64,000 nucleotides of DNA from Gayadomonas joobiniege G7 (GTDB lineage: Bacteria; Pseudomonadota; Gammaproteobacteria; Enterobacterales; Alteromonadaceae). Under the pieces are notes generated by a model. It was given only the letters and a program-made list of their open reading frames with translations, did no database searches and was not told where the DNA came from. Each line of letters starts with the position of its first letter. Position 1 is the first letter of the stretch. The stretch covers positions 434,001 through 498,000 of the forward strand of contig NZ_AMRX01000006.1 of assembly GCF_000300815.1 (NCBI RefSeq), read 5' to 3'. This document shows, in pieces, positions 15,836 through 64,000 of the stretch. A program made the translations under genes and the position numbers.

Positions 15836-16098
15836 GTTAGAAACACCTTTGGTGGTTCCAACCTACAACAAACATCAAATGTGTCTGCATAGTGTTGGAA
15901 TCACCTTTGGTGGTTCCAACCTACAACAAACATCGCATTTGACTGCATATTGTTGGAAACACCTTTGGTGGTTCCAACCTACAACAAACATCACATTTGT
16001 CTGCATATTGTTGGAAACACCTTTGGTGGTTCCAACCTACAACAAACATCGCATTTAACTGCATATTGTTGGAATCACCTTTGGTGGTTCCAACCTAC
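15836..16098 (-). repeat. Five-unit 58-bp REP array (type C)
   Basis: The hairpin GTTGGAAACACC...GGTGGTTCCAACCTAC starts at 15836, 15894, 15952, 16010 and 16068 with a constant 58-bp period; two units carry GGAATCACC instead. The foot GTAG lies on the minus strand, so the array points towards the cpdB-like gene's 3' end and its last unit touches that gene's stop codon. Confidence 0.95.
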
Positions 16099-59987: not shown

Positions 59988-60290
59988 ACACGTTCGTATA
60001 TTTGACGTCGCGTAAATTTAGGTTGGCACCGCCAACGGCGTTGCAACATTATGCAGACGATTGTGGTGTTTGGTTATTACACGTTCGTATATTTGACACC
60101 GCGTTGATGTAGGTTGGCACCGCCAACGGCGTTGCCAACAATATGCAGACGATTGTGGTATTTGGTTTTTTCGCAGATCATTCAAACAACTGTGTTGTAT
60201 GCATTTGTCGGCTGCACCTTCGGTGGAGCCGACCTACAATTGGTGGAGTGGCGCGACAATTGGTGGATCTGGCCTACAACAGGTCAAACC
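59988..60290. repeat. 91-bp tandem repeat with type-E REPs, then minus-strand type-A REP and half repeats
   Basis: Two 91-bp units start at 59988 and 60079 (ACACGTTCGTATATTTGAC), each with the hairpin GGTTGGCACCGCCAACGG...GTTGCCAACA. A type-A REP in minus orientation follows at 60205-60237, then short units of AATTGGTGGA. The same order recurs at 61581-62994, interrupted by the IS element. A degraded type-E copy lies near 60408-60434. Confidence 0.88.
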
Positions 60291-60536: not shown

Positions 60537-61577
60537 ATGGAAATAAACAGTATCAAACAGTGTGAGATACCATTTGAACGAGAACATACCTTAAAAGAAG
60601 CTATACAAGATTGCAAAAGTCAAAACCATTACTTAGACAAAGAGCAAGCAGATGGATTGGCCGCTGTTGTTTTTTTATTAATCGTGTTTGTGGGTTTTTT
60701 AGCTACTTTTATTGAAACAAAAAAAGATCCTAAATTAAAAGGACCGTTTTGGGTCAATATCAAACCGATTGCATTTTATTTGGCAGCAATGTTATCCGTA
60801 TTATCGGTTTGTCAATTTTTTATCGGGAAGCAGTTAGATGTGCATGACTCCATTAAACAATGTGAGGATGAGGTATATGAAAATGCACGGAGTGAGAATA
60901 TTTGTTTTATTTTGTGGCAAACGGAAACGTTAAAAGAACTCACTATTAAGATTGACGGGCAAACCAGGGAGGTTGGGGAGCAATCAAAAGCTTTGGGTGA
61001 AACGGTAGATAATGTCGATGATAAGGCGGATGATATTACAAAAATTTTATCTGGATTAGAAGCGAAAGCTGATAAGTTGAATGTTATCGCTTTAGAGTCA
61101 CATAAGATTTTGAAAAGCTCCGCAGAAAAGGCAGCACAAAAACTACCAGAAGGGCTTAATAAGTACAAATATCATGTCGCGCTTACCGGAATAGATGCAA
61201 AATCTCAATGTGAAAAATACAGCAATGATATTATTTATTGGAACATAGGGGTGGATGGAAAACAACTAAGCAATGTTTTCCCCAAACAGAAGGAAGTAAG
61301 TAATGAATCTTTAACCTATGAGCAAATCAAGTCGCTTGACTCATCTTATAGTGTAGTCAGTCTCGAAAAACTCGGTGAAACACCCAAATTTAATTTATAT
61401 GGTTATGTGAGATATAAAACTGGCGAGACGCTTTTTTTGCAAAAGGTATTGTTTCCTTATAAAGGTACTCTTGATAGAGATATAACTTATGTTGATGGCA
61501 AACCCAGTTACCCCATTACAATTAGTGCGGCCACTGGATGTGACATTTTGTTAACTTTTACTATTGATAGAGAATAA
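60537..61577 (+). CDS. Two-span membrane protein with coiled coil, unknown function
   Basis: This 346-residue protein has two membrane spans at about residues 41-61 (LAAVVFLLIVFVGFLATFIE) and 78-97, then a heptad-like coiled coil at about 125-205 (EVGEQSKALGETVDNVDDKA), and a C-terminal beta-rich domain with three cysteines. GAGAGGGA precedes the ATG. I do not recognise the family. The gene lies between two direct copies of a REP-containing block, which resembles a cargo gene bounded by recombination sites, though no recombinase of its own is encoded. Confidence 0.7.
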   Translation: MEINSIKQCEIPFEREHTLKEAIQDCKSQNHYLDKEQADGLAAVVFLLIVFVGFLATFIETKKDPKLKGPFWVNIKPIAFYLAAMLSVLSVCQFFIGKQLDVHDSIKQCEDEVYENARSENICFILWQTETLKELTIKIDGQTREVGEQSKALGETVDNVDDKADDITKILSGLEAKADKLNVIALESHKILKSSAEKAAQKLPEGLNKYKYHVALTGIDAKSQCEKYSNDIIYWNIGVDGKQLSNVFPKQKEVSNESLTYEQIKSLDSSYSVVSLEKLGETPKFNLYGYVRYKTGETLFLQKVLFPYKGTLDRDITYVDGKPSYPITISAATGCDILLTFTIDRE

Positions 61578-61641
61578 ATTCGTGTATTTGACACCGCGTT
61601 GATGTAGATACCATCTCTCACAACCAGCTTCAAGTCGAGAT

Positions 61642-62628
61642 TTAAGTGACTTGAGGCTGATATTCGGTTTGATTTTTGATCACTCCAAAACACATTTGTG
61701 CCAGTTTGCGCATCGCTGCACCTAAAGCCTGCATTTTTGTTTTTCCTTTTGCCAATAGCCGACTCTTTTGCGCCTTTATGCTGTGATTGAATTGACCTGC
61801 GACTATCGCGGCCATATATAGTTTTGCTCGAATACGAGAGGGACCAGCCTTACTTAAAGTCGTGCGGCCTTTTAGCTTACCTGATTCGTTTAATTTGGGG
61901 ATTAAACCTAGATATGCACCGACTTCCTTGGCATTTTTAAAGGTTTTAGATGCAAAGAGATATGTTAGCTCTCTCGATAGAACCGAGCCAATACCTGGAA
62001 TACTTCCTAGAAGCTTTCGGTTATTTTTTAATTCCGGGTTTCTGTTAATATGATCATCTATGTCTTCTGTAAGCTTCTTTATTTCTGTTTCAAGCGCTTG
62101 GAGCATGTCTTTTAAAGACATTACAACCCGCTCAGAAGACAAGCCAAACTCACTGGAATCTAGACGATTTAATTCTCTCTTGTAGTCGGCTTCTAGCGCA
62201 TCTAATCGTCTCAGCAGTGCGTTAAGCTCCCGTACTTCAATGGGCTCGGGCTTCCAAAACTCTATGTGCCCCTGCTGAGCACAACCGTAATTGGCGAGCA
62301 TAAATGCATCAGATTTATCCGTCTTATGCGTTAGGTTAATCGCCTGTGCATACTTTTTTGCGTACCCTGAATTCACAAGGTAGACCTTAAATCCGTGATC
62401 ATGCAAAAAATACATTAAGGTTTCATGATAAACACCGGTCGGTTCAAGAGTCACGATAACCTGCTCAGGTTTAGCTTTAATGTTGTCTAACAGCCATTTA
62501 GCCAATGCTTGATGGCCGTCAGTATTATTTTTTAATACTTTGGATTTTTTCTTTCCTTTGTGAGCGTCTCTAAGCCAACAAACGTCAATTTTATTTTTAC
62601 TAATATCGATGCCAGTAAAGTACATCAT
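61642..62628 (-). CDS. IS110-family transposase (DEDD recombinase)
   Basis: The 328-residue reading starts at the ATG at 62628 (GGGGAG 9 bp upstream); the longer ATG at 62661 would read through the predicted RNA guide region. The RuvC-like part has TGIDISK, TLEPTGVYHE and the pair in HKTDKSDA, giving the D-E-D-D set. The C-terminal Tnp20 part has SIPGIGSVLSRELTY, VGAYLGLIPK and LSKAGPSRIR with the catalytic-type serine. The gene is full length without frameshift, so the element may be active. Confidence 0.93.
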   Translation of the reverse strand: MMYFTGIDISKNKIDVCWLRDAHKGKKKSKVLKNNTDGHQALAKWLLDNIKAKPEQVIVTLEPTGVYHETLMYFLHDHGFKVYLVNSGYAKKYAQAINLTHKTDKSDAFMLANYGCAQQGHIEFWKPEPIEVRELNALLRRLDALEADYKRELNRLDSSEFGLSSERVVMSLKDMLQALETEIKKLTEDIDDHINRNPELKNNRKLLGSIPGIGSVLSRELTYLFASKTFKNAKEVGAYLGLIPKLNESGKLKGRTTLSKAGPSRIRAKLYMAAIVAGQFNHSIKAQKSRLLAKGKTKMQALGAAMRKLAQMCFGVIKNQTEYQPQVT

Positions 62629-62632
62629 CTCT

Positions 62633-62806
62633 ATATACTCCCCTTGTACATGCAGCGTCAACTCGTTAAAGTGCGCTTGGATACCATTCAGTTTATTGAG
62701 AAAAAGAAGTCAGGGTTTAATCTACGCGACAGCATATATTTGCTCAGGTTGGCAACAAACTCACTGACTTCTGGATGCATTAAGTAATAGCTAACCACTT
62801 AATGCA
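62633..62806 (-). ncRNA. Predicted bridge RNA of the IS110-family element
   Basis: Read on the minus strand: a 5' hairpin GCATTAAGT/ACTTAATGC (62805-62777), then a loop closed by the 9-bp stem AGAAGTCAG/CTGACTTCT (62772-62764 with 62713-62705), then a second loop up to 62642. Loop 1 holds TGCCAACCT (62754-62746), identical to the target's left half including core CT, and GTAG (62725-62722), complementary to CTAC. Loop 2 holds ATGGTATC (62687-62680), identical to the element's right end, and TACAAGG (62648-62642), complementary to CCTTGTA at the left junction. No transcript evidence is available. Confidence 0.78.
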
Positions 62807-62816
62807 GAGAGATACA

Positions 62817-62994
62817 AGGTTGGCACCGCCAACGGCGTTGCCAACAATATGCAGGCGATGTGGTGTTTGGTTTTACAGTGACACAATTCCACATCGGAGT
62901 AATTGTCGGCTGCACCTTCGGTGGAGCCGACCTACAATTGGTGGAGTGGCCCGACAATTGGTGGAGCGGCCCAACAATTGGTTAAACCGACCTA
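62817..62994. repeat. REP block right of the IS element
   Basis: It continues the interrupted type-E REP (62817-62849), then has a minus-orientation type-A REP at 62903-62935 and three AATTGGT-based half repeats. The last GTAG foot on the minus strand shares its first base with the stop codon of the beta-helix gene. Confidence 0.85.
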
Positions 62995-64000
62995 CTAAAA
63001 CTGCGGAAAATCGCTTGATTTAACGCTGGTGCCAGCTCTAAATACGCGGTCTTTTAGCCAAGTTGTACTGCCTTCCCACGCACCGCGCGCGATCGGCGAA
63101 TTTCCGGTTACGCCGTTAATGTAAGTTCCGTTTGAGTTTTGCGCCGAGCCAGCATACAACTTAAAGTTACCTGCGGCGGGATCTTGAAAGTTATTGCCGT
63201 ATTGGGTGTCGGTAAAGTTGGTATTGTGACTTTCACTAAAATTGTAATTATACGGAGCATTGGCAATTTGGCTCGCAAAAGCGCTTAAACTGTACTCGGT
63301 AATTTTAGAAATGTTACCAGTGGCTTCAGCTTTGTGCTGCGGAAGCGTCAAGTTAACATAGGTGCCACTTAGTTTGTGTGCTTTGTTTGCCACCATAATG
63401 TTATTTTTAAAGTGAGCATTGTTTATTAATCCATGAATGTTTTTATTTGTATCTGAGTGGTGCCAGATATTTAAAAAGCTATCGTAGTTGTAAAATGTAT
63501 TATTAAAATATTCAATTTTGCGTGTCATGCTACGTGAACGTGGACCTAAATAAATAATACTTCCGTCTGGCTCTATTGCCGTACCAGAGGTTTTACGTGT
63601 ATAACCAGTACCACGGATATTGTAGATAAGATTGTGGTGCACGCTATAGTTATCTACGTCTTCTAAATATAAAGCTTTTACGGTTTGACGGTTATAAACA
63701 GGTTTAGTATCCATCGCTGGAATACCATGAATGTCTCTAATAATGTTGTAGGCAATTTGAGTGTTTTTAAGATCCAGGTAATTTGTTTGACCTGTGCTTG
63801 TCATCATAATTGAACCTGCATCTTCACCCATTGCCATGGCTTCATACATTAGGTTGTCGGTGATGGTTGATTTAACAGGTGCTGTGGTTCTAATATGAAA
63901 ACGTGATGAACGGCCCAATGTATTTTGTGTTATTTGGGTGTTTTCGCCTTCGTTAAAAATCGAAACGGTAAACTGACCCAGCCAGCCAATATCTTCGATT
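62995..64000 (-). CDS. Right-handed beta-helix protein, 5' part outside the window
   Basis: This is the C-terminal part (at least 335 residues) of a larger protein; the frame is open to the window end. The sequence shows repeated short beta rungs with Asn ladders (NTQIAYNIIRDIHGI, NYSVHHNLIYNIRG, KIEYFNNTFYNYDSFLNIW, NNAHFKNNIMVAN), typical of a right-handed parallel beta-helix as in pectate-lyase-like and alginate-lyase (PL6-like) enzymes. The segment DLKNTQIAY and the QDPAAGNFKL motif fit this class. A polysaccharide-degrading or binding role is inferred; catalytic residues cannot be assigned from the C-terminal part. Confidence 0.75.
   Translation of the reverse strand, partial: IEDIGWLGQFTVSIFNEGENTQITQNTLGRSSRFHIRTTAPVKSTITDNLMYEAMAMGEDAGSIMMTSTGQTNYLDLKNTQIAYNIIRDIHGIPAMDTKPVYNRQTVKALYLEDVDNYSVHHNLIYNIRGTGYTRKTSGTAIEPDGSIIYLGPRSRSMTRKIEYFNNTFYNYDSFLNIWHHSDTNKNIHGLINNAHFKNNIMVANKAHKLSGTYVNLTLPQHKAEATGNISKITEYSLSAFASQIANAPYNYNFSESHNTNFTDTQYGNNFQDPAAGNFKLYAGSAQNSNGTYINGVTGNSPIARGAWEGSTTWLKDRVFRAGTSVKSSDFPQF

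What the first reader, a model, noticed from the sequence alone, without database searches (positions are those of the whole stretch)
61595..62830. IS110-family element with a readable bridge RNA: all four guide matches visible
On the element's strand the target is TGCCAAC-CT-ACATC, with the element inserted at CT. The 5' non-coding end has the order hairpin, target loop, donor loop. The target loop holds TGCCAACCT (9 of 9 with the left target) and GTAG (pairs with CTAC). The donor loop holds ATGGTATC (8 of 8 with the right end) and TACAAGG (7 of 7 complementary to the left junction CCTTGTA). Left guides match one strand and right guides the other, as known for the IS621 bridge RNA, whose target is likewise the CT of CTAC at the foot of a REP. 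The element thus appears to be a REP-targeting bridge recombinase from a different REP background.
Basis: partly seen in the sequence, partly recalled or inferred. Interest (0 to 1): 0.9.

Follow-up and report, generated by a model that had tools for sequence, protein, structure and literature searches.

The report
REP-hopping element with a bridge RNA
This is a small jumping gene from a marine Catenovulum bacterium that carries its own guide RNA; the RNA base-pairs with the foot of a repeated DNA hairpin to choose the insertion site, and comparison with relatives shows that the guide and the site change together.

Summary
An intact 1,213-bp IS110-group element (61606-62818, minus strand) encodes a 328-aa DEDD recombinase, 39% identical to IS621 with all five catalytic residues, and a bridge RNA in its left end. 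The seventh base of TACAAGG does not read the donor; it sits at the 'handshake' position, which pairs with the target base left of the core. A covariance model built without this element finds its RNA (E 9.5e-37) and also IS621's. In 26 non-redundant elements, left guides match their own targets far better than each other's (0 of 20,000 permutations). A second, broken copy in the same genome sits in another REP variant and its guide carries the same A-to-G change. The targets are true REPs: they cluster within about 150 kb around a REP-associated transposase (RAYT) gene just outside the window, and an empty paralogous site lies in the window. The fixed right guide (GTAG) reads the invariant RAYT/REP head; the left guide drifts with the palindrome. 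Departure: 6-10-bp covarying sub-terminal inverted repeats, where the IS110 group is described as having 2-3 bp. The mechanism is known (bridge RNA, 2024), so this is a new member.

The parts
61606..62818 (-). Whole IS110-group element including both CT cores (1,213 bp)
   Evidence: Ends fixed by comparison with a second 97% identical copy, an empty paralogous site and about 30 relatives
61642..62628 (-). Recombinase gene, 328 aa, DEDD (D8, E62, D104, D107) plus S249
   Evidence: PF01548 and PF02371; NF033542 over cut-off; best PDB match IS621 E 5e-50; residue mapping
62637..62818 (-). Left end with bridge RNA (model span; the true 5' end is not known)
   Evidence: cmsearch R1, 173.7 bits, E 9.5e-37; RNAalifold 26 of 35 pairs with compensatory change in relatives
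62776..62806 (-). 5' hairpin of the bridge RNA
   Evidence: strand folding; coordinates
62746..62754 (-). Left target guide TGCCAACCT
   Evidence: 9/9 with left target; covaries with target
62731..62744 (-). Inner hairpin between LTG and RTG (AGCA...TGCT)
   Evidence: Compensatory changes in all four pairs
62722..62725 (-). Right target guide GTAG, followed by handshake base A (62721)
   Evidence: Pairs with CTAC; invariant in the clade
62705..62772 (-). Target-binding loop with closing stem AGAAGTCAG / CTGACTTCT
   Evidence: Stem columns 65-72 with 127-134 of A2 strongly covarying
62680..62687 (-). Left donor guide ATGGTATC
   Evidence: 8/8 with right end 61607-61614
62654..62677 (-). Hairpin inside the donor-binding loop (AGCGC...GACGCT)
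   Evidence: Compensatory changes
62642..62648 (-). Right donor guide TACAAG (62643-62648) plus handshake guide G (62642)
   Evidence: 6/6 with CTTGTA; handshake base covaries with target -1
62807..62813 (-). Left sub-terminal inverted repeat ATCTCTC
   Evidence: 7 of 7 with the right copy; covaries in the clade
61613..61619 (-). Right sub-terminal inverted repeat GAGAGAT
61606..61633 (-). -35-like TTGAAG (61628-61633), 17-bp spacer, and most of a -10-like TATCTT that is completed only across the joined right-left ends of the circle
   Evidence: TTGA-N2-(17-18)-TATCTT found at the joined ends in 27 of 31 relatives; a prediction
62819..62845 (-). REP palindrome GTTGGCAACGCCGTTGGCGGTGCCAAC forming the left target
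   Evidence: Hairpin of -16.5 kcal/mol (36-nt flank ending at the insertion point) directly left of CTAC
61594..61607 (-). Right target CTACATCAACGCGG
60090..60148 (-). Empty paralogous site: 59 bp identical across the junction

Best explanation
The element is an autonomous IS110-group insertion sequence of the IS621 type in a Catenovulum species. Inferred cycle: the recombinase excises the element as a circle; joining right to left end forms a sigma-70-like promoter that transcribes the bridge RNA; the RNA's target loop pairs with the 3' foot of a REP palindrome (LTG with the variable arm, RTG with the invariant CTAC, the RAYT/REP head); the donor loop pairs with the joined ends; serine/DEDD chemistry exchanges strands at the CT cores, helped by handshake bases. 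Shown by sequence: ends, core, RNA structure, all four guides, handshake base, covariation of guide with target, catalytic residues, REP/RAYT nature of the target. Not shown: transcription, circle formation, activity. Evolutionarily, the left guide drifts at about the synonymous rate while the rest of the RNA is constrained, and each copy sits in the REP variant that its own guide matches best. The simplest reading is that a guide mutates first and the copy then inserts at the REP variant it fits.
For: Domains and catalytic residues. Leave-out covariance model E 9.5e-37; the same model finds IS621 (E 7.9e-6), an Enterobacter relative (5.6e-7) and Vibrio halioticoli (2.5e-27) RNAs. 26 of 35 pairs with compensatory changes. 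Guide-target permutation 0 of 20,000. Within-clade co-change 16 both, 2 guide only, 10 target only, 63 neither. Second copy in the genome with LTG GCCGAC in a GCCGAC REP. Handshake covariation. Empty paralogous site. REP cluster around a RAYT. Target repeat of a relative at 52 copies against 0 for the reversed-pattern control. Target loop changes 20/276 sites against 8/853 in the rest of the left end and 99/1975 third codon positions.
Against: No transcript, circle or transposition data. Only one intact copy in the genome; the other is frameshifted and has a CC instead of CT right core. Some relatives match poorly (L011, L015, L046: 6 of 8), and a few have CA instead of CT in the guide core (L010, L012, L031, L037). 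RTG extension beyond GTAG shows only weak covariation (position 1 p 0.006, positions 1-3 p 0.056). Within-clade pairs are not independent, so the counts overstate the number of events.
Confidence: 0.93

Rival explanations
1. The recombinase protein itself reads the target, and the target-like string in the left end was copied from the flank (gene conversion or capture), so the match is a by-product.
For: LTG equals the target strand, as a captured stretch would; the loop changes faster than the rest of the RNA.
Against: The match is limited to the 7-9 guide letters in exact register, on one strand for LTG and the other for RTG. The handshake base, 100 nt away, tracks target base -1 with the complementary letter. 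The surrounding RNA keeps a covarying structure. The same mechanism is proven for IS621 (PMC11208160).
Confidence: 0.03
2. A shorter seekRNA that only finds the target, with the ends recognised by the protein through the sub-terminal inverted repeats (model of Siddiquee et al. 2024), rather than a bispecific bridge RNA.
For: The clade has 6-10-bp covarying sub-terminal repeats, like those used to define IS1111 elements.
Against: Both donor guides and the handshake base are present and nearly invariant, in the order of the IS621 bridge RNA; the donor is too invariant here for covariation to decide.
Confidence: 0.12
3. A dead relic: the guides are fossils and the element no longer moves.
For: Only two copies; one frameshifted with a mutated core; a diverged R1 match without the element's ends lies in another Catenovulum genome.
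Against: The window copy has an intact gene, both cores, all guides and conserved catalytic residues.
Confidence: 0.2

Closest known systems
IS621 (E. coli; Choi 2003 as cited in PMC1525189; Durrant 2024, PMC11208160; Hiraizumi 2024, PMC11208158)
   Same: DEDD+Ser recombinase, bridge RNA in the left end with hairpin, target loop, donor loop; CT core; REP target with CTAC on the right; left end CTTGTAT, right end GTATCT; handshake bases; promoter across the joined ends.
   Different: 39% protein identity; different left guide and REP; donor GGTATCTTGT with TACAAG pairing contiguously (IS621's RDG pairs discontiguously); 7-bp sub-terminal inverted repeat, against 2-3 bp described for the IS110 group.
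ISCro4 (PDB 9t56)
   Same: IS110-group recombinase of the same length class.
   Different: Matched by protein only (E 8.9e-48); its RNA and target were not compared.
IS1111 group / seekRNA elements (PMC11187229)
   Same: Sub-terminal inverted repeats of similar length; RNA-selected target; natural redirection known (ISEc11, ISXne4).
   Different: Here the RNA lies upstream of the gene in the left end and the order is that of the IS110 group.
REP-associated IS elements in general (PMC1525189: ISPa11, ISPpu9, ISPpu10, IS621)
   Same: Insertion at a fixed point in REPs.
   Different: Different hosts and REPs; the guide RNA was not known at the time.

Membership tests
IS110 group (IS621-type) bridge-RNA insertion sequence | DEDD RuvC-like domain plus Tnp domain with catalytic serine | tested here: met
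   PF01548+PF02371; NF033542 203.7 bits over cut-off 140; D11/E60/D102/D105/S241 of IS621 map to D8/E62/D104/D107/S249
IS110 group (IS621-type) bridge-RNA insertion sequence | Structured non-coding RNA in a long left end, short right end | tested here: met
   Left end 190 nt, right end about 36 nt; covariance model; compensatory pairs
IS110 group (IS621-type) bridge-RNA insertion sequence | Two loops with LTG/RTG matching target strands and LDG/RDG matching donor strands, overlapping a CT core | tested here: met
   for RTG, LDG and RDG by match only, since these are nearly invariant
IS110 group (IS621-type) bridge-RNA insertion sequence | Guides covary with target | tested here: met
   0 of 20,000 permutations for LTG; handshake base p 0.00025
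IS110 group (IS621-type) bridge-RNA insertion sequence | Sigma-70-like promoter formed across joined right and left ends | tested here: inconclusive
   TTGAAG-17-TATCTT present at the junction in 27 of 31; 4/6 matches to each consensus box by eye; no transcript data
IS110 group (IS621-type) bridge-RNA insertion sequence | Only short (2-3 bp) sub-terminal inverted repeats (Durrant 2024) | tested here: not met
   7-bp repeat here; runs of 6-10 bp in 17 of 21 clade members, covarying
IS110 group (IS621-type) bridge-RNA insertion sequence | Circular intermediate, RNA binding, recombination activity | not testable with these tools
   Needs experiment
IS1111 group | Guide RNA in a long right end downstream of the gene | tested here: not met
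   The RNA is upstream, in the left end; the right end is about 36 nt
REP / RAYT system (the target) | Repeated palindrome with GTAG head, abundant in the genome | tested here: met
   31 GCCRACCTAC sites against 14 for the reversed pattern, 30 of them on contig C7 at 373-521 kb; most shown ones are hairpins
REP / RAYT system (the target) | RAYT gene flanked by REPs | tested here: met
   NF047646 170.5 bits at C7:432815-433213, REPs on both sides in opposite orientation; Pfam Y1_Tnp alone missed it

The most novel reading that the evidence does not exclude
This clade of bridge-RNA elements is specialised on RAYT-made repeats: its right guide is locked to the invariant GTAG head that RAYT/REP systems keep, while the left guide drifts freely (about the synonymous rate, 8 times the rest of the left end) and copies settle in whichever REP variant the mutated guide fits. 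REP families would then act as a ladder that lets guides be reprogrammed step by step, and the covarying 6-10-bp sub-terminal repeats would make the clade intermediate between the IS110 and IS1111 groups.
Probability: 0.4. Interest if true: 0.6.

Novelty: new member of a known kind. Interest (0 to 1): 0.48.

Why it matters
It is an independent natural confirmation of the bridge-RNA model, down to the handshake base, in a clade of mostly marine gammaproteobacteria only 39% identical to IS621, with donors and guides that differ from the published tool. It also gives near-identical copies in one genome or genus whose guides were redirected by single mutations, which makes the open question of how guides are reprogrammed in nature directly testable, and it ties three layers together: a RAYT makes REPs, and a bridge-RNA element lives on their feet.

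Tried and rejected
Rfam: no match at E up to 5, since no family fits. First genome-contig scan with the single protein found nothing; an alignment query gave 47 loci. Pfam Y1_Tnp found no RAYT in the genome, which suggested 'REP-like, no RAYT'; NCBIfam NF047646 overturned this. Hypervariability of the target loop (faster than neutral): rejected, it is not significantly faster than third codon positions (20/276 against 99/1975, p 0.15). Extended RTG pairing beyond GTAG: weak only. A palindrome directly left of every target: only a trend, not universal (tail pairing p 5e-5, strict 9-nt arm score p 0.15; L037 and V. halioticoli are not in REPs). Phage records: no DNA match. Orphan bridge RNAs in the own genome: none at E <= 0.01 beyond the two copies, with the first-look candidates scored. 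An automatic parse of the handshake base in L023 picked a wrong place (A instead of G), so 26/31 is slightly too low.

Full report
WHAT IS THERE. On the minus strand, 61606-62818 is a 1,213-bp element bounded by CT cores. Left junction GGTGCCAAC|CTTGTATCTCTC, right junction GAGAGATGGTAT|CT|ACATCAACG. The gene 61642-62628 encodes 328 aa with DEDD_Tnp_IS110 and Transposase_20 domains, NCBIfam 'IS110 family RNA-guided transposase' over cut-off, and best solved relatives IS621 (E 5e-50) and ISCro4. The catalytic residues reported for IS621 (D11, E60, D102, D105, S241; PMC11208158) align with D8, E62, D104, D107, S249; overall identity is 39%.

INSERTION. A paralogous REP unit in the same window (60090-60148) is identical over 59 bp across the junction but has no element, so the insertion is precise apart from the repeated CT core. 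A second copy, 97% identical, lies about 24 kb away in the genome (G000:C7:520118 to about 521332), frameshifted by a 2-bp insertion and with CC in place of the right CT. It is in a different REP: left target AGCCGAC where the window copy has TGCCAAC, and its left guide reads TGCCGAC where the window copy has TGCCAAC. One letter changed in guide and target together.

BRIDGE RNA. About 30 relatives were collected from Catenovulum sediminis, Saccharobesus, Pseudoalteromonas, Marinomonas, Amphritea, Vibrio and others. The host genus is inferred from this: genome G005, of the window's own genus, carries the same two loci as C. sediminis WS1-A. Alignment of 22 left ends, leaving out both window-genome copies, gave a consensus of 5' hairpin, target loop with inner hairpin, and donor loop with inner hairpin; 26 of 35 pairs have compensatory changes. 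The covariance model finds the window RNA at 62818-62637 minus, 173.7 bits, E 9.5e-37, the only hit in 64 kb. It also finds the bridge RNA of IS621 (30 bits, E 7.9e-6) and of an Enterobacter relative (35 bits, E 5.6e-7) end to end. Single-sequence folding is stable too (-52.1 kcal/mol, z -2.84).

GUIDES. In 26 non-redundant elements the best match of own left target (-7 to -1 plus C) in the loop averages 7.27 of 8, against 4.91 for other elements' targets; no permutation of 20,000 came near (maximum 151, observed 189). The right target is CTAC throughout (CCAC in the broken copy) and the RTG is GTAG throughout. Within clades of closely related copies, guide and target differ together at 16 position-pairs, guide alone at 2, target alone at 10, neither at 63 (pairs overlap, so this is not a count of independent events). 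The four Pseudoalteromonas variants change at -6, -4 and -1 in step with their targets.

RATE. Among near-identical copies the target loop differs at 20 of 276 sites, the rest of the left end at 8 of 853 (odds ratio 8.3, p 1.4e-7), third codon positions at 99 of 1975. The guide is therefore roughly neutral, not hypervariable. Because each copy sits where its own guide fits, guide mutation followed by insertion at the matching REP variant is the simplest history. This is inference.

TARGET = REP. GCCRACCTAC occurs 31 times in the genome, 30 of them at C7:373-521 kb, mostly as feet of hairpins such as GTTGGCAACGCCGTTGGCGGTGCCAACCTAC and GTCGGCTGCACCTTCGGTGGAGCCGACCTAC. A RAYT gene (NF047646, 170.5 bits) lies at C7:432815-433213, about 0.8 kb outside the window's left edge, flanked by REPs in opposite orientation. 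Nunvar et al. 2010 (PMC2817692) describe exactly this for marine gammaproteobacteria: REPs accumulate within at most 200 kb of the rayt gene and carry a GT(A/G)G head. The invariant right guide GTAG therefore reads the RAYT/REP head. In G057 the target repeat GCATAAATGCTCGYCTAC occurs 52 times against 0 for the reversed control. Not all relatives use REPs: L037 and the V. halioticoli copies sit at TTGACCA|CTAC in non-palindromic DNA.

ENDS. A covarying sub-terminal inverted repeat (GAGAGAT/ATCTCTC here) flanks the donor, with unbroken runs of 6-10 bp in 17 of 21 distinct clade members; position 8 pairs in 18 of 22 (IS621 included) against 7.2 expected. Durrant et al. describe 2-3 bp for the IS110 group and 7-17 bp for IS1111 (PMC11208160). 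The clade has IS110 architecture with IS1111-like repeat length. A TTGAAG-17-TATCTT promoter-like arrangement forms only across the joined ends and is kept in 27 of 31, as reported for IS621.

VERDICT. The observation and the interpretation hold. The mechanism and REP targeting by IS110 elements are published (PMC11208160, PMC1525189), and natural redirection is known for IS1111-type elements (PMC11187229). This is a new, well-supported member. Its added value is the within-genome guide change, the handshake covariation, the RAYT-REP-IS link and the long sub-terminal repeats. Whether the clade is already in ISfinder could not be checked.

Noticed in passing
G000:C7:432815-433213 (L094:12815-13213), about 0.8 kb left of window position 1: RAYT gene (NF047646, 170.5 bits) at the heart of the REP cluster that fills the window; Pfam Y1_Tnp misses it.
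   Followed up: yes
window about 15858-16090: Tandem array of a 58-bp unit with REP GTTGGAAACACCTTTGGTGGTTCCAACCTAC (five copies, G000:C7:449858-450090).
   Followed up: no
G005 C1:596787-646706 and C1:2506527-2582216: Catenovulum sediminis also has local clusters of GCCRACCTAC REPs; their RAYT was not sought.
   Followed up: no
window 61613-61619 and 62807-62813; relatives: 6-10-bp covarying sub-terminal inverted repeats in an IS110-type element.
   Followed up: partly
L124:1540-1640 (G001, same genus): Apparent diverged remnant of a bridge RNA (33.5 bits) just after what reads like the 3' end of an integrase-type gene; left-guide region reads ATCCCAACCTGAGCA.
   Followed up: partly
window RTG region 62722-62728 and REPs at G000:C7:512011-512681 and 520004: The window copy's extended RTG CGCGTAG would pair with CTACGCG, the right flank of another local REP type (GCCGACCTACGCGG), better than with its own site CTACATC; may be chance.
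   Followed up: no
L010, L012, L031, L037: Left guides read CA opposite the CT core, a mismatch at the second core base.
   Followed up: no
window 60537-61577 (+) and 62995-63918 (-): Flanking ORFs of 346 and 307 aa match no Pfam or NCBIfam family.
   Followed up: partly
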